DNA of 64,000 nt from Pectobacterium actinidiae (GTDB lineage Bacteria; Pseudomonadota; Gammaproteobacteria; Enterobacterales; Enterobacteriaceae). Shown here piece after piece: positions 11,195-26,929 of this stretch. How positions within the stretch are numbered: the stretch's first letter is position 1; the number at the start of each line of letters is the position of its first letter. The DNA is taken from assembly GCF_000803315.1 (NCBI RefSeq), contig NZ_JRMH01000002.1, positions 186,001 through 250,000 on the forward strand, written 5' to 3'. The notes beneath the pieces are model-generated. The model did not search any database. It was not told the origin of the DNA and was given only the letters and a program-made list of their open reading frames with translations. The position numbers and the translations under genes are program-made.

Positions 11195-11320
11195 CTTCAT
11201 TGTCAGCCTTAAACCACCTCCTCGGGAGGTGGTGATTGTCCCTGTGAGGCTATAGCCTGAAGGAAGCCCATGCCAGAAAATTCCAGCTTACTCACCACAA
11301 GTAAGAAGGAAATCACTGAC

Positions 11321-11758
11321 ATGAGCAGTTATAGAAGTTCAGCACATGTGTTTTGGCGTTGCAAATACCACTTGGTTTGGACCCCAAAATATCGCTACAA
11401 GATTTTAACGGGCACAGTAGGGAAAGAGCTTTACCGTTCGATTTACATACTTTGCAATATGAAAGATTGCGAGATATTGGAACTAAATGTTCAACCAGAC
11501 CATGTTCATCTTGTCGTGATGGTTCCACCGAAACTCTCAATTTCAACGCTAATGGGCGTCCTGAAAGGGCGCACGGCAATTCGTCTCTACAATAAATTCC
11601 CGCATATAAGAAAGAAACTGTGGGGCAATCACTTTTGGGCTAGAGGATACTTTGCGGACACGGTGGGAGTGAACGAAGAAATTATCAGACGTTACGTGAG
11701 GCATCAGGATAAGAAAGACCAAGAATACGAACAGCAAATGGAGTTATTGCAGGATTAA
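11321..11758 (+). CDS. tnpA: IS200-type transposase TnpA (Y1 HUH endonuclease)
   Basis: 145 residues from ATG 11321, which has an AAGAAGGA ribosome site; an upstream in-frame start at 11270 would add 17 unlikely residues. The HUH motif is His61-Val-His63 and the catalytic tyrosine is probably Tyr125 in RRYVRHQ. It performs single-strand cut-and-paste transposition. The reading frame is intact and full length, so the element may still be active. No tnpB accompanies it. Confidence 0.92.
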   Translation: MSSYRSSAHVFWRCKYHLVWTPKYRYKILTGTVGKELYRSIYILCNMKDCEILELNVQPDHVHLVVMVPPKLSISTLMGVLKGRTAIRLYNKFPHIRKKLWGNHFWARGYFADTVGVNEEIIRRYVRHQDKKDQEYEQQMELLQD

Positions 11759-12689: not shown

Positions 12690-14357
12690 TTACTTAACAA
12701 CACCTAACTCTATCGGATTGGGATATAACATGGTCCACCGACCGTTATCATTATTAACGCCTGTTCCGGTTGCTGAAATTTGATAGGTATCAGGATCCAT
12801 AACGACATAGCGACGAGTAGACAGAGCCAACAGCGTCCCATTGCCATTGCCGGAATCGGTATAAATAAAGGATTCGCTGTCGGTCACATTGCTGGCAGAT
12901 GCCAATAAATGCCCTTCTGCGGAGACAGAAATATATTTTCCGGTCTGTATCGAACGAAAAGCGAATCTATTTTGCGTCAGGTAAATTGCCTGAATCCCGC
13001 TGGTTACAGATGGATTGACCCCATTGACGATAATGGGCGTTGATTCGCCGGTAACCGTGACCAGCGTCCCGGTATTATCCTGATTTCTCGATTTACTGAC
13101 AGATTGCAGGACGATAGACATAGGGCTTGAGACGGAAGCCTCCGTGGCATTAATAAGCCCTTCATACGAGGGATGATCAAAATAGAATTTGCCTATCGGC
13201 ATGCGGCTGATGACGTCTTTCGTGTAAGACAGCTTAGTATCAGACACGCCAGCAGCGGTAAATAAGCTGAAAATTCCCCGATATATTGGCCTGAACTCTC
13301 CGCGAAAGCGCGGGGATATCGTTAAACCCGGCGTCCATGAGTTCCCTTTTCCCATATCCGCAAGCGTATAACCTTTGCCAGGAATCGGCGTATAGGGAAC
13401 CGTATATCCCAGATTGTATTTCGCGGTATATTCGGCCGCCTTAACAAGTGGATAGCTATTATTCGGGTAGCTCACCATATCTGCACCGCTGGCATGATAG
13501 TGGCGCTGGTTATAGCCAATCTGCGCGGCCATGACTAATAACCCTAATCCACCCTGTGCATGCGCCTGATCGCGACCGCTCTCCTGCAATTGGCCATTTT
13601 CATTTTGTACATAATGGATAACCGAGCCATTTCCCTCGCCCTGTTTAAAGTAATTAACTGCATCGTTATATATTTCGGAATCGTTCAGCCATACACCTAA
13701 GCTCAGGTTAAATACGGTGTCGGCGGCGTCCCAATTGCCATTAGCCCAGCCGCCATTAACCTGACCATAGGTACGGGTCAATGGGTAAAATACGTCGGTC
13801 ATCATTTTACTAAATTGCGCAATATCAGCTGACGACCAGCCACTTCCGGTGTAACGCAGAATTTCAGCCGCATTAAGCAATTTATAGCCATAAAGGCTGG
13901 CAGCAAGCTGTGCGTCGTGGCCTTTAATTTCCGTTAATGTCGTGGACCAGCCGTTAAGTATTTTTATCGCCGCATTAGAATAGATGGGGCTCTTTGTCAT
14001 CGCCCATTCAATCGCCAGCGACAATGCCGCTGACGCACTATTCTGTAAATCGCCGTTTCCCACATTGCCATTCGTAGGATCGTTTCGGTATACCACCGCT
14101 TTTGGTGTGACCGAATACGTGGAGCTCGCCAAATAGTGGGATTGCAATAGCTGCCAATCCGTATACCAGGGATCCTGCTTATTATCGACCCCCGCCTTCA
14201 TTCGCTCCAGATCGGCCTGCGTATACAGCATACCCGGGTGCAGGAACGCTTTATCATTGGTTGCTGCATGGCTAACTTTCAACCCGCACAAAAACAGACT
14301 CAACAACGTTATTATTAAGAAAAATGTACTCTTTTTCTTACTCAAGAAGCTATCCAT
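12690..14357 (-). CDS. Secreted alginate-lyase-family polysaccharide lyase with C-terminal trefoil-like domain
   Basis: 555 residues. A signal peptide with hydrophobic core FFLIITLLSLFLCGL ends near residue 31 (SHA|ATNDK). Residues about 35-400 form an alpha/alpha-toroid of the alginate lyase family, with the conserved patches GGWANGNWDAADTVFN (202-217) and ESGRDQAHAQGG (259-270) that carry the probable catalytic residues. Residues about 415-550 look like a fascin/beta-trefoil-type carbohydrate-binding domain (FAFRSIQTGKYISVSAEG; STRRYVVMDPDT). It lies 41 bases after the heparinase-like gene and is probably co-transcribed from the sigma-54 promoter at 16318. Family members cut alginate or other uronans; specificity cannot be read from sequence alone. 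Confidence 0.75.
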   Translation of the reverse strand: MDSFLSKKKSTFFLIITLLSLFLCGLKVSHAATNDKAFLHPGMLYTQADLERMKAGVDNKQDPWYTDWQLLQSHYLASSTYSVTPKAVVYRNDPTNGNVGNGDLQNSASAALSLAIEWAMTKSPIYSNAAIKILNGWSTTLTEIKGHDAQLAASLYGYKLLNAAEILRYTGSGWSSADIAQFSKMMTDVFYPLTRTYGQVNGGWANGNWDAADTVFNLSLGVWLNDSEIYNDAVNYFKQGEGNGSVIHYVQNENGQLQESGRDQAHAQGGLGLLVMAAQIGYNQRHYHASGADMVSYPNNSYPLVKAAEYTAKYNLGYTVPYTPIPGKGYTLADMGKGNSWTPGLTISPRFRGEFRPIYRGIFSLFTAAGVSDTKLSYTKDVISRMPIGKFYFDHPSYEGLINATEASVSSPMSIVLQSVSKSRNQDNTGTLVTVTGESTPIIVNGVNPSVTSGIQAIYLTQNRFAFRSIQTGKYISVSAEGHLLASASNVTDSESFIYTDSGNGNGTLLALSTRRYVVMDPDTYQISATGTGVNNDNGRWTMLYPNPIELGVVK

Positions 14358-14398
14358 AAACGGTTTCCTTTTCGTCGATTGATATCAGATTACAGAAA

Positions 14399-16283
14399 TC
14401 ACGGAGCAATAGTGATAGCGATTCTATAATCAGATTTTGCAGGTATTGTCTTTTGTACTGCCAACATTGATGTCCCCACATTATTCTTTTGTCGGCTATC
14501 GGCAGGTATTGTCGATAACACGCGGAATTCAGCAGAATCATCATGCTTGATCACCCTGATGGCCTTGCCATCTTTGGTCAATAGCGCAGTGTTGCCATTA
14601 ATATTGATCTCGGCCGTTGTCACCATCGCCCAGCGGTATACTTTTTGGTTGTAGGTTCCCTGTATTGAATCGCTTATGGTTATTTTCTTTCCATCTAATC
14701 GGTATGCTCTGGTTATTTTTTCCGCGACATGAGGATAGACAGGCGTTAACTCAAGCATTGCCGTTGATTGCTTTTCATCCCACATTAATGTCGCCACACC
14801 GTCAGGACTCTGATTTTCCCCATCAAAGGTTAGAGTGTTATGGCTCAATGCAGACACGCGGAAATACGACGGCCGCACAGCACCATCAAAATAACCGGGG
14901 AGATTGTAATAATCTTTACCGAGATCGTTAGCCCAGCGAATGCCGTCATATTCCAGAACAAAAGAGCCAAGATCCTGATGGGCATGATTCGCTTTATTGT
15001 CACCAGACTTAATACCTAACCAGACGTTTCCCTCATCTGAAAATCGCTTTTTATATATAAAAAGTGCCGAGGGTCCATGAAACAAAAATTTATCTTGTGT
15101 CGTTGCGCGACTGACATTAACCGCTTGTGGATACCACAGCGCAAATAACGGCAGAAAGCGATCGAATTCTCCCCCACGCTTTCCCTTCCGCCGAGCGCGC
15201 CAGCGCTTTCTGCATTTGTCCTCTGGCAGCATCAATAATCAGGTCTTGTTTATAGCGATTGCCAAACCATGCGTAAGCTGGGGTATAGCCCTGATCTTCT
15301 ACCGCATCACCATAATTAAAACCCTCACCCGAGAAACCTTCTATAGCAAAACGATACCAGGGCGTTCTTTCCAGAACCGCATCAGACGATAAACCATAAT
15401 CCTGACCAAACGCGCTGTTCAGCATTTCCTGCGCGAGAATGCGATAGGTTATCCCGTAGCTCCAGTAAATAGGGCCTTCGGCGCTTGCACCGTCAGGTTT
15501 ATAGGCATCCAGCCCCATTTTCAGCGAAGGGATAATCGTGTTGAGCAACGCCTGTGCCTGTTCGGGGTAATGTTCAGCCGTCGCGAGAACGGCGGCGAGT
15601 ACCCCACCGTTACAGACCTCATTCCAGTTGGTTGCCCACCACGGAAAACCCAAGCTAGGGGCCGCGGGATTTTTTTCAGCATAAGCCTTTAATCCCCAGT
15701 TAATGCCTTTCTCAAGCAACGCTTCCCGAATTTTCTTTTCTTCTTCGGAGGAGAGTTGGCTATAAAGCCAGTCATAGCCGATAGCAACAGCAAACATCAT
15801 TTCGCCCGCATCAAGAAAGCGGGATTTCGCATTCCAGTCAGGGAAATCAGAGACCGCAATCATGGTTTCTTTGGCTTTGTTAGCGAAACGCACGTCGCCA
15901 GTGATCTGCCACGAAAAGGCATTATCTAAGATAATCTTGATGGCCTTGCGTGAGGTATCCAGTAATGAAGGTGATGCATCATTTCCGGTCAATTTATAAT
16001 GAATGACGGGTTCTTTAAGGCTTTCCTCCGCCCTTCTGACGACTTCATCAACCAATTTTTTCATGCCCTCATCGCTTTTAGCCTGCGCTTTGATGCTTTT
16101 TATATCCTCTTCATTCATCAATAATCTTGGATGATCTTTTTTTAAATTTTTAATGACTGTGTCGCGAGTAAATATATTGATGGCATTAAATTCATGAGCT
16201 TCAGGAACAGCTGCCTGCGCAGGATTGATCATAAAAATGGAGGTAATCATTATAGCCAGAGAGGTTCTATTCATGATTCGCAT
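14399..16283 (-). pseudogene. Heparinase II/III-family polysaccharide lyase, frameshifted
   Basis: Two overlapping minus-strand frames (15117-16283 and 14399-15235) together encode one lyase of about 627 residues. The first begins MRIMNRTSLAIMIT, a signal peptide ending PAQA, then an alpha-toroid (WWATNWNEVCNGGVLAA, SAEGPIYWSYG). The second carries the C-terminal heparinase II/III beta-sandwich (NHAHQDLGSFVLEYDG, ALSHNTLTFDG). They join without loss if one G is removed from the five-G run at 15171-15175: the sequence then reads KAWGEFDRFLPLFALWYPQ. Such lyases cleave uronic-acid polysaccharides by beta-elimination. The break may be a real mutation, a phase-variable tract or a sequencing error. 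Start could also be the ATG at 16274. Confidence 0.8.
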
Positions 16284-16317
16284 ATCTTCCTGTGTATTTT
16301 ATTATCCGACAGGAATA

Positions 16318-16333
16318 AGCAAGGCTGATGCCA
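16318..16333 (-). promoter_or_regulatory. Sigma-54 (-24/-12) promoter of the lyase genes
   Basis: On the minus strand TGGCATCAGCCTTGCT matches the TGGCAY-N5-TTGCW consensus exactly, with the required 10 bases between GG and GC. Predicted transcription start is near 16307, 24-33 bases before the possible start codons of the heparinase-like gene. The sigma-54 activator encoded at 24235-26850 is the obvious partner. Confidence 0.8.
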
Positions 16334-16370
16334 GAAGAGAAAAGCTTTTACTTTCAAAAAACTAAAATAG

Positions 16371-16425
16371 AGTGTTCAAAAATAAATGCGTCCGTTATTA
16401 GTGTCTACGGATACTCAGACGCTAA
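16371..16425. promoter_or_regulatory. Predicted upstream activator sites for the lyase promoter
   Basis: Three related motifs lie 40-110 bases upstream of the -24/-12 promoter: AGTGTTCAAA (16371-16380), TTAGTGTCTA (16398-16407) and CAGACGCTAA (16416-16425). TTAGTGTCTA is the exact reverse complement of TAGACACTAA found before the activator gene, and CAGACGCTAA differs by one base from TAGACGCTAA before the PTS operon. The rest of the gap up to 16641 shows nothing else I can name. Confidence 0.6.
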
Positions 16426-16641
16426 GCGATACATAGCTCACAAAACAATCATGGCTACGCTTAATTATCGCCTTTGACATCATGTAGTGCGGCCATCTTT
16501 TAACGATATCATCGACACTACTTTTTCCTTATTTCCCGCTCCAGTGAAAAATAGTGGAGAAATGTGCACAGCCTCACAATACTATTTTCCCCACGCAGGC
16601 CTTTCATTTCCTCCCACACCTAAACCGATGCGGGAGAAGAT

Positions 16642-17823
16642 TTACATCGAGAGCGGGTTGAAGACGCGAGCGAGGCGTCCCTGCCCTAGCACCGTTACCT
16701 GCGCGTGATTCGCAGGGATAAAACAGGATTCGCCCGACTCCAGCTTAAGCTGTTCACCAGCGCTCTGTAGTCGCGCGTCCCCCTCAATACAGAAAACTAT
16801 CGCAGCACTGTCCTGTTTAAGGTTCTGAGGCTCAGAGCTAAGGTGATGCACAGAAAAAGCGAAGTCATCAACGGGAATAGGGAAACTCAGCGTATGGTCA
16901 GTGATTTTCGGTATCGTCAATAATCGATCAGCAGGAGAAGACTCGAAGCGAACATTCGCGACCAGTTCAGGAATATCGATATATTTAGGCGTCAGCCCAG
17001 CCCGGAGCACATTGTCCGAATTGGCCATCACTTCCAATGCCACGCCGTTCAAATAAGCATGGGGCGTTTCCGCATACAAAAACATCGCCTCACCCGGTTT
17101 TAGCGTTATCACATTCAGTAGCAAAGGCGAAAAGAGGCCGTTATCTGACGGGTAGACATGCGCAATAGCGCGGATCGTATCCCAAGGTTCACCGGTTTGC
17201 TCGGTCAGCACCTTCCGCAGTGTCTCCAACGCCTGTGCTTTCCTTTCCTCTGTCATATCCAATAGCGCGGTAAACAGACAAGCCAAACCTACAGTATCAG
17301 GCTGCAGCAAGAACGCGGCGATGGCAGGATGAGCATCGCGAACAGGCTCTACCAATGCAGCGATCTCCGGTAGCGGCCTGAAACCATTGATGGCTTGAAA
17401 CGGCGTCAATGCAAAGACCAATTCAGGTTTATGGTTGGCATCTTTATAGTTTCGTTCCGCCGCATCAAGCGGGATACCAGCGGCATTTTCCCGGGCAAAG
17501 CCCTGCTCCGCCGCGGTTTTGCCAGGATGCACCTGAATGGAAAGCGGCTGTTCCGCACACAGCACTTTGAACAGGAAAGGCAGTTCGCCAAAGCGGTGCG
17601 CGACCTGATGGCCTAAACGGCCGGACAAATCCTGAGCGAGCCAGTCATGCAGGCTAACGACATCATTATTTTCATCCACAATCCGGGAACTACTTTTAGG
17701 GTGCGCGCCCATCCAAAGCTCAGCCATCGGGAGTTGGTCTTTATTGTCGAGACCGTACAACACGGTGAGCGCACTTTTGCTACCCCATGCGTAATACTGA
17801 ATGGAGTTACACATTTTTTTCAT
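16642..17823 (-). CDS. manA: Mannose-6-phosphate isomerase, class I
   Basis: 393 residues, close to E. coli ManA over its whole length (391 residues). Interconverts mannose-6-P and fructose-6-P; zinc-dependent, cytoplasmic. The metal/active-site stretch SIQVHPGK, the NHKPELVFALTPF block and GVALEVMANSDNVLRAGLTPK are intact. It is the last gene of the PTS operon, 60 bases after the HAD gene. Placed here it is probably a dedicated copy for the hexose phosphate released from the imported sugar; whether the genome has a second manA cannot be seen. Confidence 0.93.
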   Translation of the reverse strand: MKKMCNSIQYYAWGSKSALTVLYGLDNKDQLPMAELWMGAHPKSSSRIVDENNDVVSLHDWLAQDLSGRLGHQVAHRFGELPFLFKVLCAEQPLSIQVHPGKTAAEQGFARENAAGIPLDAAERNYKDANHKPELVFALTPFQAINGFRPLPEIAALVEPVRDAHPAIAAFLLQPDTVGLACLFTALLDMTEERKAQALETLRKVLTEQTGEPWDTIRAIAHVYPSDNGLFSPLLLNVITLKPGEAMFLYAETPHAYLNGVALEVMANSDNVLRAGLTPKYIDIPELVANVRFESSPADRLLTIPKITDHTLSFPIPVDDFAFSVHHLSSEPQNLKQDSAAIVFCIEGDARLQSAGEQLKLESGESCFIPANHAQVTVLGQGRLARVFNPLSM

Positions 17824-17883
17824 ACTGACGCCTTTTGATGGAACAGGGTTTTCCGTAGGAAAGCGTGATGAGCGGTCGCACTA

Positions 17884-18708
17884 TCAACGTGCGCTTTCGT
17901 TTGGCATAACATAGCGTTGCAGCGCAACAGCCACGCCTTCCTGGTCATTATTGGTCGTTACCCAATCCGCAATCGCTTTAATCTTTGGCACCGCATTACC
18001 CATCGCGATCCCCGTACCGGCGAACGCTAACATCTCTCTATCGTTTTCCTCATCGCCTATCGCCAGAATCGCCTCTGGAGGAATCGCGAGATGGGCAGCC
18101 AATGCCTGACAGGCCGCGCCTTTGTTAACGCCGCACTGCATGACTTCAAAATAGTTGGGTTCGCTGCGCACGAAATAATAGCGGCGGGAAAGAGAGGGGG
18201 AGATGCGCTCGGTCAGGGTATCAATCGTGGTTCGTCCCTCAATAAACATCATTTTTGGCGTCTGCCGTCGGGAATGGGTTTCCCAGCCTGAGGGCAGGCT
18301 GACCACTGGCATACGGCAATACCGCAAGGCACCCGCGTCTGGCGGAACAGGCCTGCTGGCGACCAGTTGCTGTCCATCAATTTGGTAGCACTCCAGATTC
18401 AGGCTGCGACCAAACTGTGTCAGCCTCAGAATATCGTCATGTTGCAAAACATGCGCGCTGATGATGGCCGAGTTTTCCTGACTCCAGGTCAACGCCCCGT
18501 TGCAGGCGATAGCCCAGCAGCGAGCGCCGTCTAACGCTAGCTCCGCCATGATTTGTAACACGCTGGGCAGCGTTCTTCCTGAAACCAGTGCCACATGGAG
18601 CCCTCTATCGAGCGCTTCTCGCAGTATCTCGCGTGTCGCTGGCGTCACGGCTTTTTGTGACGTCAGCAACGTGCCATCCAGATCGATGGCCAGCAATTTA
18701 AATCTCAT
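17884..18708 (-). CDS. HAD-superfamily (Cof/IIB type) sugar phosphatase
   Basis: 274 residues from the ATG at 18706-18708, which has an AGGAAGAGG ribosome site; a longer frame to 18762 lacks one. Motif I is DLDGTLLTS near the N-terminus, and motif IV is GDEENDREMLAFAG, preceded by a conserved Lys (NKGAACQALA). Cof-type enzymes hydrolyse sugar phosphates, pyridoxal phosphate or nucleotides. In this operon it may relieve sugar-phosphate stress or trim a phosphorylated intermediate; the substrate is unknown. Confidence 0.85.
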   Translation of the reverse strand: MRFKLLAIDLDGTLLTSQKAVTPATREILREALDRGLHVALVSGRTLPSVLQIMAELALDGARCWAIACNGALTWSQENSAIISAHVLQHDDILRLTQFGRSLNLECYQIDGQQLVASRPVPPDAGALRYCRMPVVSLPSGWETHSRRQTPKMMFIEGRTTIDTLTERISPSLSRRYYFVRSEPNYFEVMQCGVNKGAACQALAAHLAIPPEAILAIGDEENDREMLAFAGTGIAMGNAVPKIKAIADWVTTNNDQEGVAVALQRYVMPNESAR

Positions 18709-18792
18709 TGCCTCTTCCTGCTCATTCTCTTTTTTGACGCGAACGAGAGCGCGACATATCAACGCCGCGCTCCGCCTGACAACAATAAGAAA

Positions 18793-18815
18793 CGCCCCCT
18801 CGAATGAGGGAGGCG
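18793..18815 (-). terminator. Hairpin between the PTS IID gene and the HAD gene
   Basis: Near-perfect stem CGCCCCCTC / GAGGGAGGCG (one bulge) just after the IID stop codon, followed on the minus strand by a weak T-rich stretch. With no separate promoter seen in the 111-base gap, it looks like an attenuator or mRNA-processing site lowering expression of the distal two genes. Confidence 0.5.
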
Positions 18816-18819
18816 AGAT

Positions 18820-19677
18820 TTAGATGATGCCAACGCCCGCCGCAGCGAAGCCTAAAACAATTAACAGGATAAGCACCCGATTAGGACTGACTTTCTTCTG
18901 GAGCAGCTTGAAACACCCCAATACCAGCAGCAGCGGAATGAGGCCGACGCATATCTTGTCGAGGATCTCCTGCAAGACAAAAGGCTGTCCGGCGATGGTG
19001 GTTTTATAGGTCGCGGTAAACTTCACCATACTGGCGCTCATCGCGCCGACCATCATCAAGCCCATAATCGACGAGGCTTTGGTAATACAGCCCAATAGGC
19101 CTGACTGGGTCGCCTCCGCTATATATTTTGACCCCAGTCGATATCCCATCACTCCGCCATAGTAGCGAACCAGATAGCTTGGAATGTTGTAGACCAGCAA
19201 GAAGAGCAAGGGGCCGAGCGGATTCCCCTGAGAGGCTAATCCGATAGCTATCCCGGTCGCGATGATGCGTAACACACCGTAGAAGAAAGAGTCCCCCACT
19301 CCCGCAAACGGCCCCATCAGGGCGACTTTGATGCCGTTGATACTGGATTTATCAAAGTCAGGGTTACTGGCGTTCTCTTTTTCCATCGACAGCGTCAACC
19401 CCATAATGAAGGGAGCCAAGTGCTGGTTGGTGTTAAAGAACTGGCTATTACGCTTTAACGCATCAAGATAACGATGCGGATCCGGGTAGATTTTTTTCAG
19501 CATCGGTGCCAACGCCCAGCCGTAGCTCAGCCCTTCCATACGCGTGAAGTTCATCGACCCCAGTAGCTGAAACTGACGGAAGAACAGCTGGCGAAACAGT
19601 TTTTTCTCACTCTTATCATCGTTGTATGCGCCGACATGCTTTGTATCGCTGGCAGAGTTTGTTTGGATATCAGTCAT
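18820..19677 (-). CDS. PTS system, mannose family, IID component
   Basis: 285 residues from the ATG at 19675-19677, overlapping the IIC stop by 8 bases; an alternative start at 19689 gives four more residues. Contains the IID signature blocks FRQFQLLGSMNFTRMEGLSYGWALAP, MGPFAGVGDSFFYGVLR and a C-terminal membrane region. IID together with IIC forms the membrane channel of mannose-type PTS permeases. The set IIA-IIB-IIC-IID is complete in this operon. Confidence 0.93.
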   Translation of the reverse strand: MTDIQTNSASDTKHVGAYNDDKSEKKLFRQLFFRQFQLLGSMNFTRMEGLSYGWALAPMLKKIYPDPHRYLDALKRNSQFFNTNQHLAPFIMGLTLSMEKENASNPDFDKSSINGIKVALMGPFAGVGDSFFYGVLRIIATGIAIGLASQGNPLGPLLFLLVYNIPSYLVRYYGGVMGYRLGSKYIAEATQSGLLGCITKASSIMGLMMVGAMSASMVKFTATYKTTIAGQPFVLQEILDKICVGLIPLLLVLGCFKLLQKKVSPNRVLILLIVLGFAAAGVGII

Positions 19678-20473
19678 TGAAGAACCCATCCTTATCGTCT
19701 ACAGAAGCCGCAGGAGCAGCAGCAGTATTCTGTTTGTTGGCTTTGAGCTGGTTGAACTCGTTAAAACACAGGTAAACAGCGATAGAGGCGGCAATAATCG
19801 CGATCCCCATGATCGGCAGCTTTAAGTAGGCCGCCATGGCGAAACCGATAAAGAAGAACGCGGCGATATTACGGTTCCACAACGCCTGGAGCAGAATGGC
19901 GAAGCCCAGAGCGGGAAGCATGCCGCCCACCGCAGTCATACCACGCATGGCAGTACCGGGGATGCTTTCCACCAAACTCCGGATGACATCCGTGCCATAC
20001 AGCACGCCAAAGAACGCGATCACCGCAAACGGTACGCCGTAGAACAGGGTCATCCCCAGCGTCATACCGAGCGCCGCACGATCCCTGCCCTTTTCAAGCA
20101 GGGCGTCATATTTCTCGACCAGACCGGTATAAATCAGTTTCTCAACCTGATAGACAAAAACCGCCAGCAGACTAATCGGTAATGCCAGCGCCACGGCAAC
20201 GGCAGGCTCTGCGTTCGTTAAAATAGTAAAGGCGGTAGCCAGAACCGAACCGACCGCAAGATCGGCAGGCACCGAGCCACCGATGGTAATGGTGCCAAGG
20301 AAAATGAGCTCCAACGCAGCACCGATAATAATCCCTTGCTGGAAATCACCCAGCACGAACCCGACCATCGCGCCACACACCAGCGGACGTTCAATCAATG
20401 GTTGCCCCAGCGTATGGTCGGCAAATTTGGCGATATACATCACCAAAGCAATAAGAAGCGCTGTTGTTAACAT
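19670..20473 (-). CDS. PTS system, mannose/sorbose family, IIC component
   Basis: 267 residues, strongly hydrophobic; begins MLTTALLIALVMYIAKFADHTLG and includes ERPLVCGAMVGFVLGDFQQGIIIGAALELIFLGT, the typical IIC signature. The closest described relatives in form are AgaC/AgaW-type components of amino-sugar and uronyl-disaccharide PTS. A charged cytoplasmic tail (about 240-267) ends the protein. It is followed by IID with an 8-base overlap, and preceded by IIB 11 bases away. Confidence 0.92.
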   Translation of the reverse strand: MLTTALLIALVMYIAKFADHTLGQPLIERPLVCGAMVGFVLGDFQQGIIIGAALELIFLGTITIGGSVPADLAVGSVLATAFTILTNAEPAVAVALALPISLLAVFVYQVEKLIYTGLVEKYDALLEKGRDRAALGMTLGMTLFYGVPFAVIAFFGVLYGTDVIRSLVESIPGTAMRGMTAVGGMLPALGFAILLQALWNRNIAAFFFIGFAMAAYLKLPIMGIAIIAASIAVYLCFNEFNQLKANKQNTAAAPAASVDDKDGFFND

Positions 20474-20484
20474 GGTGACCTCGC

Positions 20485-20979
20485 TTAATGGGCGTTATCC
20501 AGCATTTCAATCAGGTTTTTTATTGGATGTGAGGGTAAGACCTGATACTCCACCGCAACGCCACGTTCAGCAATCGCATGAAAATCAGCCACATCCTCCG
20601 GCGTCACATAAACGGTGTCGCTGACTCTGGTTTTTGCCGCCAGGTTGTCGGTAATACGTCCGTAGTTCGCAACATTTAGCGTTTTTATCGCAGGAACCTG
20701 TTCAATCAGGCGTCGGGCATCGGCCGCATTATTAATGATGATCAGAATTTTCATGCTGTCGGAGCGGGCGTCATTCAGTACATCAACAGCATCAGCTACC
20801 GTCATAATGGCGCATTTGGCCGTATCCGGGGCGGCCATGCGTAGCGACATCTTTTGTACGTCGTTATTCACAATCTGATCGTTCGCAACCAGAATGCGAT
20901 TCACACCGAGGTGTTTTGTCCAGACCACGGCGACCTGTCCGTGAATCAGACGATCGTCAATACGAATAAGAGAAATCAT
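20485..20979 (-). CDS. PTS system, mannose family, IIB component
   Basis: 164 residues from the ATG at 20977-20979, which follows AGGAGTAACACC; a longer frame overlapping the GH88 gene is not needed. The phosphorylated histidine is His13 in RIDDRLIHGQVAVVW, as in all family IIB proteins. It takes phosphate from IIA and passes it to the sugar during transport. Cytoplasmic. Confidence 0.93.
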   Translation of the reverse strand: MISLIRIDDRLIHGQVAVVWTKHLGVNRILVANDQIVNNDVQKMSLRMAAPDTAKCAIMTVADAVDVLNDARSDSMKILIIINNAADARRLIEQVPAIKTLNVANYGRITDNLAAKTRVSDTVYVTPEDVADFHAIAERGVAVEYQVLPSHPIKNLIEMLDNAH

Positions 20980-21002
20980 GGTGTTACTCCTGTTATTAGA
21001 AT

Positions 21003-22178
21003 TTACCAGTAGGGGGTCCAGATTCGGGTAAGGCGAACCAGGGCTTCGAACCAAAAGTAATCGCCCCAAAGATTGGGCTCGTTAATCCCCATGTTGCGGC
21101 CAAAGTTATAAACACCTTCGCGTAGCAGCCCGTCGGAGTGATACGCAAAATAGTGCTGACGCAAATTCTGCGCGATCAGCGTGATAGCGTGGTGATAGGC
21201 AGGGCGCAGCGGATCGGTAATCGGCAACTGCTTGAGCAGTTCCGTCATCCCACACACCGCAATAGCCGCCGCAGAGGTGTCACGAAACGCGTTATCCTGC
21301 GGCGTGAAGATGAGATCCCAATAGCAGACGTGATTTTCCGGCAGCCGGTTGAGAAAATAGTGAGCCAGCTTGCGGGACAGCTCAGGAAGCTCGCCATCGC
21401 CGGTATAGTTGAACCCCAGCGCAAAACCATAAATGCCCCAGGCCTGACCGCGAGCCCAACAGGAATCATCACTAAATCCCTGATGGGTATCGCCACGTAA
21501 TGGGTGACCGGTATGGATATCCATATAAAACGTATGGAAGGTTGACGCATCGTCCCTGACCAGATGGCGTGCGGCCAAAGCAAGATGGCGCTGCGCAGCC
21601 TGCCGATAACATGCCTTTCCCGTTTCACTAGCGGCCCAGAACAAGAGAGGAACGTTCAGGTTGCAATCAATAATCATACGCCCCTGACGAGCAGGATCGC
21701 TGAGATCGCCCCACGCCTGAATCACCCCCGCGGTTTCGTTATAGCGCTGATAAAGCAGTTCAGCAGCACGTAGCGCGAGTGAACGGGCACGTTCGTTACC
21801 GGTGAGACGCCACGCATTCACGCAGGACAACAGATACAGAAATCCTAAATCGTGGGTATCGACCTTGATTCGGTTATCCAGACGCGTTTCAAAGCTATCC
21901 AGCAACCCCTCCGCCACCTGACGGTATTTATCGTCCCCGGTCACTTCCCAGGCCAGCCACAACATGCCGGTCCAGAATCCCTCCGTCCAATCGACCTTTT
22001 CGACAACCGGATAGCGACCCTCGCTGGCGCTGGCGGCAGGAAACGTGTGGCTAAAACGTGGCAACATCTCATCCACTTTTTTCAGCACATCCTGAATGGC
22101 GTCGTTGAGCCAGACCTGAGAAAGCGGTGGTTGATATGCCTCATAACGGGCATTCAAGGGTTCAAGAATCACGCTCAT
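21003..22178 (-). CDS. Unsaturated glucuronyl hydrolase, GH88
   Basis: 391 residues of the (alpha/alpha)6 GH88 fold. It removes a 4,5-unsaturated uronic acid from the non-reducing end of lyase products by vinyl-ether hydration. Two conserved aspartates, Asp110 (DTHDLGF) and Asp171 (IIDCNLNVPLLFWA), are 61 residues apart, the same spacing as the catalytic Asp88/Asp149 pair of the Bacillus enzyme. No signal peptide, so it acts inside the cell on PTS-imported substrate. Its ATG overlaps the IIA stop by one base. This is the gene that ties the PTS to polysaccharide lyases. Confidence 0.92.
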   Translation of the reverse strand: MSVILEPLNARYEAYQPPLSQVWLNDAIQDVLKKVDEMLPRFSHTFPAASASEGRYPVVEKVDWTEGFWTGMLWLAWEVTGDDKYRQVAEGLLDSFETRLDNRIKVDTHDLGFLYLLSCVNAWRLTGNERARSLALRAAELLYQRYNETAGVIQAWGDLSDPARQGRMIIDCNLNVPLLFWAASETGKACYRQAAQRHLALAARHLVRDDASTFHTFYMDIHTGHPLRGDTHQGFSDDSCWARGQAWGIYGFALGFNYTGDGELPELSRKLAHYFLNRLPENHVCYWDLIFTPQDNAFRDTSAAAIAVCGMTELLKQLPITDPLRPAYHHAITLIAQNLRQHYFAYHSDGLLREGVYNFGRNMGINEPNLWGDYFWFEALVRLTRIWTPYW

Positions 22179-22657
22179 TACGCTGGCTCCGTAGTAAAGA
22201 AATCATCAGAACCATCGCGTTCGGTATTAAAGCTCGCTTCACGCGCGGCCTGAAGCGCGGGGACGGAATTCATGTATTGCATGCCTTCGGTCGCCATCGT
22301 GATGGCCTCGCGCACTCGCACCGTGGTATCGCTATTTTCAGACAGGCAAAATGCCATCAGCATGATTAGATTTGCACCGCTGATAACGTGCATATGCGGA
22401 TATTTCACCATCAATTGCACCGCCGTGTTATTGACGCTTCCACCTTGCATATCGGTGAAAATAACCAGTTCATTGCCACGTCGCGCCGATTCCTGTGCAA
22501 TCTCACTGAAACGCTCGGCCAATTCAGCCGTTGAGCCAATATCGCCACAATAGGCACAAATAGGTTGAATCGCATGATCCTCGCCAATCAGTAAATTCAG
22601 GGCGGATACCGTCCCTTCGGCATATCGGCCATGACTGGCGATATATACTTCTCGCAT
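22178..22657 (-). CDS. PTS system, mannose family, IIA component
   Basis: 159 residues from the ATG at 22655-22657, with an AAGGAAC ribosome site; 13 extra upstream codons were left out. The phosphorylated His9 lies in YIASHGRYAEG, and the family block FTDMQGGSVNNTAVQL follows. Receives phosphate from HPr and hands it to IIB. First gene of the operon, about 32 bases after the predicted sigma-54 start point. Confidence 0.93.
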   Translation of the reverse strand: MREVYIASHGRYAEGTVSALNLLIGEDHAIQPICAYCGDIGSTAELAERFSEIAQESARRGNELVIFTDMQGGSVNNTAVQLMVKYPHMHVISGANLIMLMAFCLSENSDTTVRVREAITMATEGMQYMNSVPALQAAREASFNTERDGSDDFFTTEPA

Positions 22658-22699
22658 AATGCGTTCCTTAAATTTATTTACGGCAACTGGCAGCATTAA

Positions 22700-22715
22700 T
22701 GCACTTACTATGCCA
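22700..22715 (-). promoter_or_regulatory. Sigma-54 (-24/-12) promoter of the PTS operon
   Basis: On the minus strand TGGCATAGTAAGTGCA has GG and GC separated by 10 bases, as sigma-54 requires; the -12 half (GTGCA) is one base off TTGCA. Predicted start is near 22689, giving a 31-base leader to the IIA gene. Confidence 0.72.
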
Positions 22716-22757
22716 TCTCTATACTCATTTGTTTTTATTGATTTTTATTGTTGCTAT

Positions 22758-22805
22758 TAGACGCTAAGAATACTGTCCAGATCGATATAACACGATGTGT
22801 CGAAA
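22758..22805. promoter_or_regulatory. Predicted activator sites upstream of the PTS promoter
   Basis: TAGACGCTAA (22758-22767) and TGTGTCGAAA (22796-22805) lie 43-90 bases upstream of the -24 element. The whole stretch 22707-22820 resembles 24107-24217 in order and wording (shared ACTATGCC, TGTTTTTATT, ATTAGACGC, ACTGTC, GTGTCGAAA), as if one control region had been duplicated. The rest of this 230-base gap has no gene. Confidence 0.6.
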
Positions 22806-22888
22806 CGCTGTGCCAGCGTATTTACGCCAGCACTGCTGTATCCACAAAAATTAAGGCGCGAAAAATATAAAAATGAAACGTTCGTATT

Positions 22889-23854
22889 TCACGCCTTTCC
22901 CGTAATTTCATAATTAAGCGGCACACCATTAATCCAGCGTTGAAATTCCTCAACCACGCAGTCTGCCAATCGCCGTGTTTCATTATTGAGTGCACCGGCA
23001 ATATGGCTGGTCAGCAACACATTCGGCATGTCATAGAGCGGTGAGCCTGGCAATGGCGGTTCGGGTTTCGTCACATCCAACAGCGCCGTTAAATCTGTAC
23101 GTTCGCTGAATACGTCAATGAGATCTTTTTCATTAACCTGTAATCCCCGCCCTGTGTTAATGAATACCGCGCCGGGGCGCATAAGCCGAAACAGATCGCC
23201 ATTCAGCACGCCAATATTATCGGGGCGGTTAGGGAGGTGATTACTGACAACAAAGGATGTGCTAAATGCCGCTTCCAAAGAGATAGTCCGTCTTTCCTGC
23301 CGCGAAGGGATAGTCACTACCTCCAGCGCAAAAGGCGTCAGTAACTCAGCCAGCACCTGGGATATAGCTCCAGCACCAATCAACGCAATGCGCTCACCGT
23401 AAATTCCCGGAGCAGGATAATCAGCCGTAATAGAATGAAAATCTTCAGGCCGATTATAGTTACGCAGATTATGGAAATAGCCTTTACATGCCAAAAGGAT
23501 TTGTGCCAGACAGAATTCCGCAACAGGAACAGCATTGGCTCTCCAGGCACTGACTATTTTTATTCCCCTGGCAATAAAAGGGGCGGAGAAATAGTCCGTT
23601 GCTCCTGCTGCATAAAAGATAATCTTCAACTTTGGCAACTGGTCTAGCTGCGCCTCACTTAACGTTAACATTCCCCAGGTGGAAAAAATGACCTCCACGT
23701 TTTTCAGCGCAGGCAATGCTTGCTCAAAATTCGAAGGGGTAATCACGATGGGATGTAAATGGCACAATGATGATAATTTTTCCCTAACTGACGAGGTGTA
23801 TATCTGATCAAATTTTTCAGGCTGACAGGTGAAACCTGCGGCGTAATACGACAT
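22889..23854 (-). CDS. NAD-dependent D-2-hydroxyacid dehydrogenase-family protein
   Basis: 321 residues. C-terminal half has the Rossmann NAD loop IGAGAISQVLAELL (about 155-168), the arginine in INTGRGLQVNEKDL, and the acid/His region TKPEPPLPGSPLYDMPNVLLTSHIAGA, so the catalytic Arg-Glu-His set appears intact. Family members reduce 2-keto acids to D-2-hydroxy acids or the reverse. It has its own predicted sigma-54 promoter and the same upstream motifs as the PTS operon, so it probably acts on a keto- or hydroxy-acid made from the imported uronyl sugar; the exact reaction is unknown. Confidence 0.8.
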   Translation of the reverse strand: MSYYAAGFTCQPEKFDQIYTSSVREKLSSLCHLHPIVITPSNFEQALPALKNVEVIFSTWGMLTLSEAQLDQLPKLKIIFYAAGATDYFSAPFIARGIKIVSAWRANAVPVAEFCLAQILLACKGYFHNLRNYNRPEDFHSITADYPAPGIYGERIALIGAGAISQVLAELLTPFALEVVTIPSRQERRTISLEAAFSTSFVVSNHLPNRPDNIGVLNGDLFRLMRPGAVFINTGRGLQVNEKDLIDVFSERTDLTALLDVTKPEPPLPGSPLYDMPNVLLTSHIAGALNNETRRLADCVVEEFQRWINGVPLNYEITGKA

Positions 23855-23894
23855 AACCTATCCCCACTGGAGTGATGAAAAGAAGACAGTTTTG

Positions 23895-23996
23895 CTAATA
23901 CTGGTCACTTAAGCCTGTTATTAGGGGAAACACAGAGGGGAGATCCCCGCAGGGAAGCCTCACCCCTGTGGTCGCCCCGTGTATCTCAATGCTTAA
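23895..23996 (+). repeat. Dispersed 102-bp repeat, copy 1
   Basis: Almost identical, in reverse orientation, to 48191-48291. Its ends carry TTAAGC and GCTTAA, and the interior has complementary arms (CACAG-GGG type against CCCCTGTG), so the RNA could fold. It lies in the long leader between the predicted sigma-54 start (about 24088) and the dehydrogenase gene. A 66-codon frame across it is not a gene. Confidence 0.85.
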
Positions 23997-24098
23997 GAGC
24001 GGCATTAGACGGTTTGGCTTCTTCTTTGTTATTTCGACAACGTCCGCATCAAGACTTCTTGATAACGATCGCTGACGCGCTTCTTGATTAAACAAGAA

Positions 24099-24114
24099 AG
24101 CAATAACTATGCCG
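24099..24114 (-). promoter_or_regulatory. Sigma-54 (-24/-12) promoter of the dehydrogenase gene
   Basis: On the minus strand CGGCATAGTTATTGCT matches TGGCAY-N5-TTGCW at all but the first base. Predicted start near 24088 gives a leader of about 230 bases that includes the 102-bp repeat. Confidence 0.72.
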
Positions 24115-24155
24115 TCGAATTATCCATCTGTTTTTATTTGGTTTTATTCGTTTAT

Positions 24156-24204
24156 TAGACGCAGGGAAAGACTGTCTAGTGCGGCATATCACCGAGTGTC
24201 GAAA
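24156..24204. promoter_or_regulatory. Predicted activator sites upstream of the dehydrogenase promoter
   Basis: TAGACGCAGG (24156-24165), TGTCTAGTG (24173-24181) and GAGTGTCGAAA (24194-24204). TAGAC and GTCTA form an inverted repeat with 13 bases between. These align with the motifs at 22758-22805. Confidence 0.55.
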
Positions 24205-24234
24205 GGCAGTGCGAGCCGATTAGCCTGCACCCGA

Positions 24235-26850
24235 TCATGACAATGCGGGATCTGAGGAAATCCAGGGTTCCATGATTTCATAAATCATCAGTACTTCTGT
24301 CAGTGGAACGACAATATGATACTTACGATTAAGTACCTGGAAAAAGGTATCGTGAACCTCGACAAACGCCAACTGCTCTGCCGTCAGTTCTGAATCATCA
24401 CGATGGCACATTCCTGTATTGACCATAACCCGCTCAATCATCAGTGCAATGTGCATAAACAGATTAATACGCAAATAGCTTTCGAAATGAATTTTATAGA
24501 AAAACTCATACTGCTTAATGACGGCTTCAACTTCATCGATAATAATAACCGGGTTAAGAAAATTAAGACGACCAGCAACACCTTCTACCGTAAATAATTT
24601 AACCACTTCATCAATCATCGGTTCCATTCCACCGGGAACAAGCAGATTGGTAAAATAATCCCGATGCAGGATGTCAACTTTCTCTTTTATCAATTGCTCC
24701 ACGCTAATAATGGGGATATAACCCGCATCGAGATCGGTCGTGGTGATGACAAGGCGCGTACCATTTAGTGCCGGATCGGCCTGTGATAATTTATATTTCA
24801 AATCATCATATTCCATTGTAACAATATCTATTGCGTCAGAGGCCAGATAGCGGAATACAATATCTTTTAACTTTCTTGAAATGCCTTCACCAGATATACA
24901 TGAAATAATAATTTTATTGCCGGGCAGCATGCCTGCATAATAGCGAGTCTCAACCTCATAGGCACCTTTTACGCTGTCGATGATCTCTTCCATTGGCAAA
25001 CGATGCTGAATTTTAGAGGCAATATCCAGTGCCATCGCGGTACTGACATTATTAATCACGAGCAGCTCACCATGAAGATGCAATTTTATTTCTTCATAGA
25101 TTTCCTTCAACGATCCCATATCGACCAATATAATTAGCCCTGCGCGCTGCTTAATACTATCCAGGTGAGCGATCAACATATCAATAATTTCACGTGTCGA
25201 CGTCGAATTAGGCATATCAAACGCTTTAAAGTAGTATCCCCCAGTTAATTGGTTAGCAACGCCAGCAATGCTGGAAGCCGTCGAACGGCCGTGGGAAACA
25301 ATAACGCCCTGAATCAGATCATCTTCACCGGATAATTTGTTCATGGCACAGCTCAGCAGCGGCATAAGCAAAGGATAATCGGTGTTTGTTACCTGTTTTT
25401 TCAGCAAGGATACACATTCAAGCGCCAGCAATCTGGCTTTAGAAGAAACGTAATCGGTGATAGAGGAAAGTTCATTGATATGTTGCTCTTCCCACGTATT
25501 GCTCATAGCGTAATGCAGGCAAAGCCAGACCGTTTTTCTATAATCCGCGTTGCATTCGATACCCGTTTGATTCTCCAGCTCATTGATGGCCCGCATCGTG
25601 TTTTGCCAGATATAACCACAATAGAGTTCATCTTGCTGAACAGTGCAATTAAGCGTGGTGAGCAGGTGTTCAAGTTTCCGGTTTAATAATAAGGTATTCC
25701 CGCTGTGGCAAAATTCCTTGAATATCACGTCATCTCGCATCGCTTTTGGCAACAGAGAGGATACATCGAGGGAGGTCGAAAATTTTCGCGCGGAGAATAC
25801 CAACGTTTCCCCACTCATTTGACCGGGCTGAGGAGACTGCAATGCAATATATTCCGAGTGCTGACTTTCATTCCATGCACTGGCGCACATCACCCTGATC
25901 TGATTTTTCAATTCGCCAATATTGCCCCGAACAGGAGACGCCACCAGCAGGTGCATCAACAGGCTATCCATATGAATATCACAGTTCAGATCGCGTGCTT
26001 CACGTCGTAAAAAATACTCTACTTGAGCAACGCGCTCTGTTAGCGGACGGGAAATAAAGTTCGGTAATGCGATACGAACGGGAATCCTTCGGCGAAACGT
26101 ATTCAGCAACACGGTATCGACATTTTCCGTCGTGGCAAAAATAAAACGGATCGCCGCCGATTGGCGGGTTCGGTTATCCCCTAAGCGATAAAAATAGCCT
26201 TTATCCATAAATAAAAAGAGTTTTTCCTGATTCTCCGCAGATAAGCGATGCACTTCATCAAGGAACAGGAAACTGCCGTCAGCGTCATCAAAAGCGCCTT
26301 TTTTATCGCGATCGGCACCAGTAAATGCCCCCTTGATATAGCCAAACAGCGTAGCGGAAAGCAGTTCAGGATTATTGGCATAGTCGGCACAGTTGAGCTC
26401 GACCAGTGGTTTATCCAAGGCAACAATGCCACGATCCTGCGCATAGCGGTGGATGATTGCCGCCAAATGGCTTTTCCCGACGCCACTCTCGCCAGAGATC
26501 AATATCGGCAACCCACGGCCAGGGTAATTCACTGCGGCACGGCAAGAAGAGATGGTTTTCTCCAGACTCCCTCCTGCGCCAATCAGTTCGCTAAAAACAT
26601 CGTCATGCTTTGGTGGTACGCTGATCTCTGGTTCGGTTTTCGGATGTCGGGTTTCAACATAAAAACGGACAGGACGGGTATTTTTCTTATGGAGCTTACC
26701 CTCGTCACACAGGCGATTAAGGTAATGGCTGATAACGCTACGGCTCACCTGAATAAAATCCGCACAATCCAGCGCCGTAAATCCATGCGCATTGCTGGCA
26801 TAGTGCGTGATGATACTTTGGAACAGTTTATCTTTCGCTGACAAAGCCAT
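24235..26850 (-). CDS. LevR-type sigma-54 activator with PRD and EIIA-like domains
   Basis: 871 residues from the ATG at 26848-26850. A GTG at 26901 would add 17 residues but lies inside the operator repeats, so I prefer the shorter form. Order: winged-helix start (residues 10-60), AAA+ module with Walker A GESGVGKS (120-127), the sigma-54 contact loop GAFTGA (174-179) and Walker B FLFLDEV (194-200), a PRD, an EIIA-Man-like domain (VIVSHGRSTASS) and a C-terminal PRD (INLFMHIALMIERV). Such regulators are phosphorylated by PTS proteins and activate nearby mannose-family PTS operons, like LevR or DgaR. The three sigma-54 promoters in the locus are its likely targets. Confidence 0.92.
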   Translation of the reverse strand: MALSAKDKLFQSIITHYASNAHGFTALDCADFIQVSRSVISHYLNRLCDEGKLHKKNTRPVRFYVETRHPKTEPEISVPPKHDDVFSELIGAGGSLEKTISSCRAAVNYPGRGLPILISGESGVGKSHLAAIIHRYAQDRGIVALDKPLVELNCADYANNPELLSATLFGYIKGAFTGADRDKKGAFDDADGSFLFLDEVHRLSAENQEKLFLFMDKGYFYRLGDNRTRQSAAIRFIFATTENVDTVLLNTFRRRIPVRIALPNFISRPLTERVAQVEYFLRREARDLNCDIHMDSLLMHLLVASPVRGNIGELKNQIRVMCASAWNESQHSEYIALQSPQPGQMSGETLVFSARKFSTSLDVSSLLPKAMRDDVIFKEFCHSGNTLLLNRKLEHLLTTLNCTVQQDELYCGYIWQNTMRAINELENQTGIECNADYRKTVWLCLHYAMSNTWEEQHINELSSITDYVSSKARLLALECVSLLKKQVTNTDYPLLMPLLSCAMNKLSGEDDLIQGVIVSHGRSTASSIAGVANQLTGGYYFKAFDMPNSTSTREIIDMLIAHLDSIKQRAGLIILVDMGSLKEIYEEIKLHLHGELLVINNVSTAMALDIASKIQHRLPMEEIIDSVKGAYEVETRYYAGMLPGNKIIISCISGEGISRKLKDIVFRYLASDAIDIVTMEYDDLKYKLSQADPALNGTRLVITTTDLDAGYIPIISVEQLIKEKVDILHRDYFTNLLVPGGMEPMIDEVVKLFTVEGVAGRLNFLNPVIIIDEVEAVIKQYEFFYKIHFESYLRINLFMHIALMIERVMVNTGMCHRDDSELTAEQLAFVEVHDTFFQVLNRKYHIVVPLTEVLMIYEIMEPWISSDPALS

Positions 26851-26894
26851 GAGCGGATTCCACCGTGGTGAGCAGGATAGTGTCCATCCTTTTT

Positions 26895-26929
26895 TAGACA
26901 CTAGACACTAAGAATTCATTGAACACTAG
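26895..26929. promoter_or_regulatory. Operator cluster upstream of the LevR-type regulator gene
   Basis: TAGACACTAG (26895-26904) and TAGACACTAA (26902-26911) in tandem, then GAACACTAG (26921-26929). The same motif occurs upstream of the three sigma-54 promoters, so the regulator may bind its own control region. Confidence 0.55.

What the first reader, a model, noticed from the sequence alone, without database searches (positions are those of the whole stretch)
12690..26850. Candidate new regulon: lyases + mannose-family PTS + GH88 + ManA for a uronyl-mannose polysaccharide
Seen directly: two exported polysaccharide-lyase-family genes, a complete IIA/IIB/IIC/IID set, a cytoplasmic GH88 with its two catalytic Asp, a HAD phosphatase, a ManA-type isomerase, a hydroxyacid dehydrogenase and a LevR-type activator. 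Known: GH88 cuts the unsaturated uronic acid left by lyases; GH88 next to a mannose-family PTS occurs in hyaluronan or chondroitin disaccharide uptake in Gram-positives. Unusual here: ManA implies that mannose-6-P, not an amino sugar, is released, and there are no amino-sugar deacetylase, deaminase or sulphatase genes. Inference: the substrate is glucuronomannan-like, such as xanthan side chains, plant gums or a fungal/bacterial capsule.
Basis: partly seen in the sequence, partly recalled or inferred. Interest (0 to 1): 0.88.

Follow-up and report, generated by a model that had tools for sequence, protein, structure and literature searches.

The report
Sugar-uptake regulon for lyase-made uronyl disaccharides
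This stretch of a soft-rot plant bacterium's genome holds genes, probably switched on together, that seem to cut an acidic sugar chain outside the cell, import the two-sugar pieces and split them for food; the layout matches a system known from streptococci, but its surroundings and the likely mannose-containing food are not ones we could find described.

Summary
The genes are there, with one correction: the heparinase-type lyase is frameshifted in this genome (intact in five related loci). The core activator-IIA-GH88-IIB-IIC-IID is in 19 of 19 loci compared and has the gene order of the streptococcal hyaluronan-disaccharide PTS cluster. Sigma-54-type promoters with a shared upstream motif precede three transcription units here, and the IIA, porin and, weakly, GH43 genes of relatives. 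In 25 genus genomes, 14 of 15 matches to the promoter pattern lie in the locus. "Regulon" is well supported. The substrate claim is only partly supported: a second, locus-borne ManA is in 3 of 7 Pectobacterium loci and in a Pelosinus GH88-GH43-lyase cluster, which favours mannose, but 15 of 19 loci lack an intact ManA, and missing amino-sugar genes are not diagnostic. One lyase is nearest PL35 glycosaminoglycan lyases; the other has a uronate-lyase toroid at 10-15% identity to solved lyases. Best reading: PTS uptake of unsaturated uronyl-hexose, most likely uronyl-mannose from plant glucuronomannan. New variant of a known kind.

The parts
12690..14357 (-). PF05426 (AlgL-like) lyase with signal-peptide-like start, (alpha/alpha) toroid plus C-terminal beta-trefoil
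14399..15235 (-). C-terminal piece of the frameshifted heparinase II/III (PL35-like) lyase gene, holds the His of the triad
   Evidence: Hepar_II_III_C; 96.9% to residues 367-627 of the intact relative in L170
15117..16283 (-). N-terminal piece of the same gene, signal-peptide-like start, holds the Asn and Tyr of the triad
   Evidence: DUF4962; 96.5% to residues 1-373 of the intact relative; triad matched by alignment
16318..16333 (-). Sigma-54-type promoter of the lyase operon, TGGCATCAGCCTTGCT (10 of 11 positions), upstream motif about 16396-16426
16642..17823 (-). Locus copy of mannose-6-phosphate isomerase ManA, 69.7% to the chromosomal ManA
   Evidence: NF011710 673.9 bits
17884..18762 (-). 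Cof/YidA-type HAD phosphatase
   Evidence: PF08282, TIGR00099; best solved relative YidA 1rkq
18820..19689 (-). PTS IID (mannose family)
   Evidence: PF03613 313 bits
19670..20473 (-). PTS IIC (mannose family)
   Evidence: PF03609 223 bits
20485..21069 (-). PTS IIB (true start probably downstream of the listed one)
   Evidence: PF03830 153 bits
21003..22178 (-). GH88 unsaturated uronyl hydrolase without signal peptide (by eye), Asp110 and Asp171
   Evidence: PF07470; 2e-105 to 2zzr
22178..22696 (-). PTS IIA; start probably ATG at 22657
   Evidence: PF03610
22700..22715 (-). Sigma-54-type promoter of the PTS-GH88 operon, TGGCATAGTAAGTGCA (9 of 11), upstream motif about 22755-22805
   Evidence: 10-11 of 11 at the same place in ten of the twelve non-Pectobacterium loci
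22889..23854 (-). D-2-hydroxyacid dehydrogenase family protein
   Evidence: PF02826/PF00389
24099..24114 (-). Sigma-54-type promoter upstream of the dehydrogenase, CGGCATAGTTATTGCT (9 of 11), upstream motif about 24153-24204
24235..26901 (-). LevR/DagR-type sigma-54 activator: AAA+, EIIA-man and PRD domains
   Evidence: PF00158, PF03610, PF00874; NF047795 410 bits, below its cut-off 1400

Best explanation
A catabolic regulon for an acidic polysaccharide. Secreted or periplasmic lyases (AlgL-like and PL35-like) cut it by beta-elimination into unsaturated uronyl-hexose disaccharides. The mannose-family PTS imports them and phosphorylates the free C6 hydroxyl of the hexose (the uronic acid has none). 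GH88 splits the product in the cytoplasm into the unsaturated uronate, which joins the KduI/KDG route coded elsewhere, and hexose-6-phosphate. The hexose is most likely mannose, taken to fructose-6-phosphate by the locus ManA or the housekeeping one, and the polymer most likely a plant glucuronomannan with the 4)-GlcA-(1,2)-Man-(1 repeat (recalled), whose side chains would explain the GH43 of other loci. The LevR/DagR-type activator switches the operons on from sigma-54 promoters. Shown: genes, order, conservation, promoter pattern, predicted fold of the AlgL-like lyase. Inferred: every reaction, the phosphorylation, the sugar, the activator-motif link.
For: Core in 19 of 19 loci. Same IIA-UGL-IIB-IIC-IID order as the streptococcal cluster, whose PTS imports unsaturated hyaluronan disaccharide and is held to phosphorylate it at C6 (PMC6837340, introduction and passages). 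GH88 Asp pair kept. Promoter pattern: 3 of 3 matches in the own genome lie in the locus; 14 of 15 in 25 genus genomes. Upstream motif TCGACACT (one mismatch allowed) in 23 of 25 chosen promoters against 1.0 expected. KdgM-type porin in 8 of 19 loci and GH43 in 4 of 19; sigma-54-like sites at 10-11 of 11 positions before the porin in 6 of 8, and at 8-10 before GH43 in 4 of 4 (random 276-base stretches have one in 15% at 8, 4% at 9, 0.9% at 10). Second ManA in 3 of 25 genus genomes, all locus carriers. Pelosinus MAG: GH88, GH43, a PF05426 protein, a further AlgL-like protein (BLAST 27%) and ManA, the second of that genome, in one row. Alginate disaccharides have no free C6 hydroxyl (established chemistry), which counts against alginate.
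Against: 15 of 19 loci lack an intact ManA (one has a fragment); in Erwinia sp. 198 the genome shows a single class I match, so there it may be the housekeeping gene. The ManA-like gene next to GH88 in Sphingobium TCM1 reaches only 19.8 bits against a Pfam cut-off of 22. The Pelosinus genome is a MAG. Nearest solved kin of the heparinase-type lyase act on hyaluronan, chondroitin and heparan sulfates. That lyase is broken here. The roles of the HAD phosphatase and the dehydrogenase are not explained: a phosphatase working before ManA would remove the isomerase's substrate. Full-strength KduI is found in 12 of 16 carrier genomes, not in every one. Lyases are absent beside 12 of 19 cores; PF05426 is absent from 8 of 12 carrier genomes searched.
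Confidence: 0.5

Rival explanations
1. Same machinery, but the imported sugar is uronyl-N-acetylhexosamine (hyaluronan- or chondroitin-like chains, including bacterial capsules); ManA is a side gene gained in a few strains.
For: Gene order identical to the streptococcal hyaluronan cluster. Best GH88 hits among solved structures are S. agalactiae UGL, one entry named unsaturated chondroitin disaccharide hydrolase. Best solved kin of the second lyase are PL35 enzymes degrading HA, CS and HS. Amino-sugar genes need not be in the cluster.
Against: No PL8 lyase or sulfatase among the locus genes; GH88 sits in its own enterobacterial clade (16 rows, 100/100), apart from the PL8/sulfatase-linked Bacillota; dedicated ManA in three Pectobacterium and Pelosinus; GH43 beside the porin in four other loci; the residue of PL35 GAGases beside the catalytic Asn (Asn or His) is Thr here.
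Confidence: 0.22
2. Same machinery, other neutral hexose (glucose or galactose), for example from a bacterial exopolysaccharide or a gum; the hexose-6-phosphate is used without ManA.
For: 15 of 19 loci lack an intact ManA; GH88 relatives occur with GH28, GH43 and GH97 in other classes and with GH28 and GH43 in Paenibacillus.
Against: Repeated ManA association.
Confidence: 0.2
3. A decaying or patchwork island in this strain: the lyase is broken and parts are interchangeable, so the locus may no longer serve one substrate here.
For: Frameshifted lyase; patchy parts across Pectobacterium, two genomes with the AlgL-like gene alone; activator gene in pieces in Candidatus Sodalis endolongispinus.
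Against: The frames of the PTS, GH88, ManA, HAD, dehydrogenase and activator genes are open and 94-100% identical in L170; promoters kept.
Confidence: 0.08

Closest known systems
Streptococcal GAG-PTS genetic cluster (spr0286-0295, gbs1886-1894; PMC6837340)
   Same: IIA-UGL-IIB-IIC-IID in that order, lyase before import, IIA/IIB/IIC/IID set.
   Different: Here Gram-negative, LevR/DagR-type sigma-54 activator, PL35-like and PF05426 lyases instead of hyaluronate lyase, ManA, HAD and dehydrogenase genes, no DhuI/DhuD/KdgK/KdgA in the cluster.
PL35 GAGases (8KHV, 8KHW; PMC12088678)
   Same: Asn/Tyr/His triad and two-domain layout, aligned over 569 residues of the L062 copy, E 1e-76.
   Different: Thr where GAGases have Asn or His beside the catalytic Asn; substrate untested; frame broken here.
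PL5, PL17, PL38 alginate lyases
   Different: 10-15% identity; extra beta-trefoil; profile search of solved sequences finds a lyase only at E 0.012.
DagR (NF047795), LevR-type activators
   Same: AAA+ sigma-54, EIIA-man and PRD domains.
   Different: 410 bits against a 1400-bit cut-off; different neighbouring genes.

Membership tests
GH88 unsaturated uronyl hydrolase | Family profile above curated cut-off | tested here: met
   PF07470 73.0 bits against 26.6; 2e-105 to 2zzr
GH88 unsaturated uronyl hydrolase | Two catalytic Asp | tested here: met
   D110 and D171 aligned with the HDLGFLY and IIDC Asp of the S. agalactiae enzyme; that these are the catalytic pair is recalled
GH88 unsaturated uronyl hydrolase | Hydrolysis of an unsaturated uronyl disaccharide | not testable with these tools
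   needs purified enzyme
Streptococcal GAG-PTS cluster | Order IIA-UGL-IIB-IIC-IID | tested here: met
Streptococcal GAG-PTS cluster | Hyaluronate lyase and DhuI/DhuD/KdgK/KdgA in the cluster | tested here: not met
   none of the locus genes matches these; KduI lies elsewhere, C1:1360363
PL35 | Homology to solved PL35 lyases with Asn/Tyr/His triad | tested here: met
   tested on the intact L062 copy, 1e-76 to 8khv; the motifs are present in the two window pieces
PL35 | One open reading frame | tested here: not met
   window copy frameshifted; intact in L056, L062, L170, L171, L172
PL5 / PL17 / PL38 (for the AlgL-like lyase) | Sequence-level membership | tested here: inconclusive
DagR equivalog (NF047795) | Score above curated cut-off | tested here: not met
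   410.3 against 1400 bits
LevR/DagR-type activator | AAA+ sigma-54 domain with EIIA-man and PRD | tested here: met
   PF00158, PF03610, PF00874
ManA (class I) | Curated equivalog cut-off | tested here: met
   NF011710 673.9 against 571 bits

The most novel reading that the evidence does not exclude
A PTS route for plant glucuronomannan: a lyase of an unassigned polysaccharide-lyase family plus a PL35 relative release unsaturated GlcA-mannose, a dedicated mannose-family PTS imports it as the 6-phosphate, GH88 cuts the phosphorylated disaccharide, and a locus-borne ManA takes mannose-6-phosphate, all under one sigma-54 activator; related enterobacteria with a porin instead of lyases scavenge the same disaccharide.
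Probability: 0.35. Interest if true: 0.72.

Novelty: new variant of a known kind. Interest (0 to 1): 0.52.

Why it matters
If right, soft-rot and other enterobacteria use PTS uptake for a uronic-acid polymer other than animal glycosaminoglycans, and the locus supplies two little-known lyases, a porin and an activator with a defined promoter pattern for direct tests. Glucuronomannans are common in plant gums and exudates (recalled). None of the listings or passages seen in the ten paper searches made here (open-licence PMC papers only) describes a lyase route to PTS uptake of them.

Tried and rejected
Alginate as substrate: considered because both lyases have alginate-lyase kin; rejected because uronyl-uronate disaccharides lack a C6 hydroxyl for the PTS (chemistry, not tested). 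Dehydrogenase as a stand-in for KduI: its presence does not track KduI absence, so not supported. A first sigma-54 scan had an index error and found nothing; corrected. PDB search of the AlgL-like lyase by sequence gave mostly beta-trefoils and fascin and one weak lyase. Megaplasmid origin of the window, suggested by the 851-kb contig C2: not pursued, since yhhW beside the island is present in all 25 genus genomes. No lyase could be assigned to CAZy. In the plasmid collection none of the 215 records with a match reached 60% identity to GH88. One search found the heparinase-type lyase in 1 of 392 family genomes at E <= 1e-40, but that sample held only five genus members and so missed the other Pectobacterium carriers.

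Limits of the promoter statistics: the 25 promoters were chosen for good sigma-54 sites; those of L057, L068, L070 and L170-L172, the IIA promoters of L056 and L062, the dehydrogenase promoter of L062, and the porin promoters of L060 and L069 (no site found) were left out; loci are related; the 8-mer was found among 2379 candidates from the same sequences; shuffles were mononucleotide, three per sequence; AT-rich 8-mers were also enriched (up to 23 of 25 against about 7-12). In one search the reversed control pattern hit 17 times in 25 genomes, about 0.7 a genome; the real pattern hit 15 times, 14 in the locus and one in G401. Sites of 8 positions, as before GH43 in L061, are weak (15% of random 276-base stretches), and such sites also stand before the L057 ManA fragment.

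Full report
What is there. The window lies on contig C2 of a 4.92-Mb genome. The genus is Pectobacterium: genus member G394 has its GH88 at the same coordinates as the named P. aroidearum L6 record behind L056. Between yhhW (11839-12534) and glpC (27387-28667), on the minus strand, stand: a LevR/DagR-type sigma-54 activator, a 2-hydroxyacid dehydrogenase, IIA, GH88, IIB, IIC, IID, a Cof-type HAD phosphatase, ManA, a heparinase II/III-type lyase and a PF05426 lyase. IIA to IID, as listed ORFs, overlap or lie 11 bases apart. G+C in 2-kb steps is 43-49% over the activator and lyases and 53% over IIB to HAD; the rest of the window runs from 50 to 57%.

Correction to the finding. The heparinase-type gene is split into two overlapping ORFs. 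They match residues 1-373 (96.5%) and 367-627 (96.9%) of the intact copy in L170, so one frameshift, recent or a sequence error. The Asn, Tyr and His that align with the PL35 triad are still encoded, on the two pieces. Intact copies stand in five loci: L056, L062, L170, L171, L172.

Distribution. GH88 at 71% identity or more is in 12 of 392 family genomes, this one included; 111 of 392 have a match at E <= 1e-20, most of the others at 49-56%. In the genus it is in 7 of 25 genomes at 91% or more, plus one at 55%. Within the 1.5 kb fetched on each side of yhhW in the 25 genus genomes, glpC is seen in 9, the AlgL-like lyase in 9 and neither in 7; two of the nine with the lyase lack the rest of the locus (L173, L174). 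So it is an island at one site. Named relatives (15 of the 80 loci kept from 259 matches): three Pectobacterium, Serratia marcescens, Acerihabitans, Sodalis, Phytobacter, Chimaeribacter, Citrobacter sedlakii, three Klebsiella, Erwinia, Candidatus Sodalis endolongispinus and a record titled Martelella alba.

Anatomy across 19 loci (window, L056-L070, L170-L172). Activator, IIA, GH88, IIB, IIC and IID: 19 of 19 (activator in pieces in L068). Full dehydrogenase: 8 of 19. HAD in the operon: 10 of 19. ManA: 4 of 19 (window, L062, L067, L170) plus a fragment in L057. Heparinase-type lyase: 6 of 19, one of them the broken window copy. AlgL-like lyase: 6 of 19; L062's contig ends before that place, and its genome has one beside yhhW on another contig (G405, L149). 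KdgM-type porin: 8 of 19, not in the same locus as the lyases. GH43: 4 of 19, convergent to the porin. In Pectobacterium the dehydrogenase and ManA occur together (3 loci) or are both absent (4 loci).

Regulon. In the window three sigma-54-like sites stand before the dehydrogenase (9 of 11 positions), IIA (9 of 11) and the heparinase-type lyase (10 of 11). Of twelve non-Pectobacterium loci the IIA site scores 10-11 of 11 in ten and 9 in L057; L068 was not examined. The porin has a site at 10-11 in six of eight and none in two (L060, L069). GH43 has one at 8-10 in four of four; the L058 one lies inside the listed ORF, whose true start is probably downstream. Random 276-base stretches of the same loci carry a site in 15% (8 positions), 4% (9), 0.9% (10) and 0.6% (11). 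An upstream motif TCGACACT with at most one mismatch is in 23 of 25 chosen promoters against 1.0 expected (limits under Tried and rejected). The pattern CTAATA-N38-66-GGCAT-N6-TGCW hits the own genome three times, all here, with one reversed-control hit, and 25 genus genomes 15 times, 14 in the locus; all seven carriers are hit and 1 of 18 non-carriers, against 17 reversed-control hits scattered over the genomes. That the local activator binds this motif is inference.

Mechanism. PMC6837340 (introduction read whole, other passages by search) gives the streptococcal order IIA-UGL-IIB-IIC-IID, import of unsaturated hyaluronan disaccharide, and phosphorylation at C6 as the PTS mode. The same logic here needs a hexose with a free C6 hydroxyl, which counts against uronyl-uronate. 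KduI at E 1e-106 or better is in 12 of 16 carrier genomes including this one; the other four have only matches at 1e-29 to 1e-37, which I read as IolB.

Which hexose. For mannose: a second ManA in 3 of 25 genus genomes, all carriers; a Pelosinus MAG with GH88, a FAH-family protein, GH43, an SLH-domain protein, a PF05426 protein, a further AlgL-like protein and ManA in one row, one of two ManA matches of that genome. ManA was sought in the ORFs of 100 loci (L036-L135, some overlapping) and seen in five distinct places: L062, L067, L057 (fragment), L085 and L107; the last, in Sphingobium TCM1 after GH88, stays below Pfam's cut-off (19.8 against 22 bits). Against: most loci lack ManA, Erwinia sp. 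198 shows a single class I match, and the PL35 kin act on glycosaminoglycans. I put uronyl-mannose at a little under one half and plant glucuronomannan as its likeliest source, helped by GH43 in other loci; this is inference.

GH88 tree. Ninety GH88 proteins: the 16 PTS-linked enterobacterial rows form one clade (100/100), apart from the PL8/sulfatase-linked Bacillota and from the GH43/GH28/GH97-linked Alphaproteobacteria and Oxalobacteraceae (context labels clusters, one or a few members of each tested with Pfam). The tree does not decide the substrate.

Literature. PMC9088014 (passages) lists an ugl gene in taro Pectobacterium under cellulose degradation; the words alginate lyase and heparinase do not occur in its main text, and PTS was not searched there. 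In the listings of ten searches I saw no description of this locus.

Verdict. Real, conserved, very probably co-regulated; a new variant of the known lyase-PTS-GH88 scheme; substrate open but testable. Interest 0.52.

Noticed in passing
window 14399-16283: Heparinase-type lyase gene split by a frameshift in this genome while five related loci keep it intact.
   Followed up: partly
L047-L052 (e.g. L048:11815-13647): The 49-56% GH88 relatives common in this family sit, in the 6 loci sampled, in another locus: DUF2264 protein in 6 of 6, a LacY-type transporter in 5 of 6 and an AraC-like regulator (named by eye) in 6 of 6.
   Followed up: partly
L053, L054: A second PTS-GH88 type in this family: GH88 at 40-43%, SIS-domain protein, IIB, IID, IIC; in L053 also an OprD porin and a GntR-UTRA regulator.
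   Followed up: partly
L100-L135: GH88 with various sets of GH43, GH28, GH97 and LacY-type transporter in Caulobacter, sphingomonads, Massilia and kin, looking like plant-glycan clusters.
   Followed up: partly
L075, L077, L081, L083, L090: Bacillota GH88 with PL8 lyase, sulfatase and ABC transporter, a glycosaminoglycan-type cluster.
   Followed up: partly
G424:C1:431344-439093 and G419:C27:121407-129158 (genomes of L064, L065): Three PF05426 matches side by side in Klebsiella oxytoca and K. grimontii, at another place than the PTS-GH88 locus.
   Followed up: no
window 11270-11758: IS200/IS605-type transposase between gntR and yhhW beside the island.
   Followed up: no
L173, L174: Two Pectobacterium genomes keep only the AlgL-like lyase at the island site (in pieces in L174).
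   Followed up: no
L068: Candidatus Sodalis endolongispinus keeps the PTS-GH88 genes although the activator gene is in pieces.
   Followed up: no
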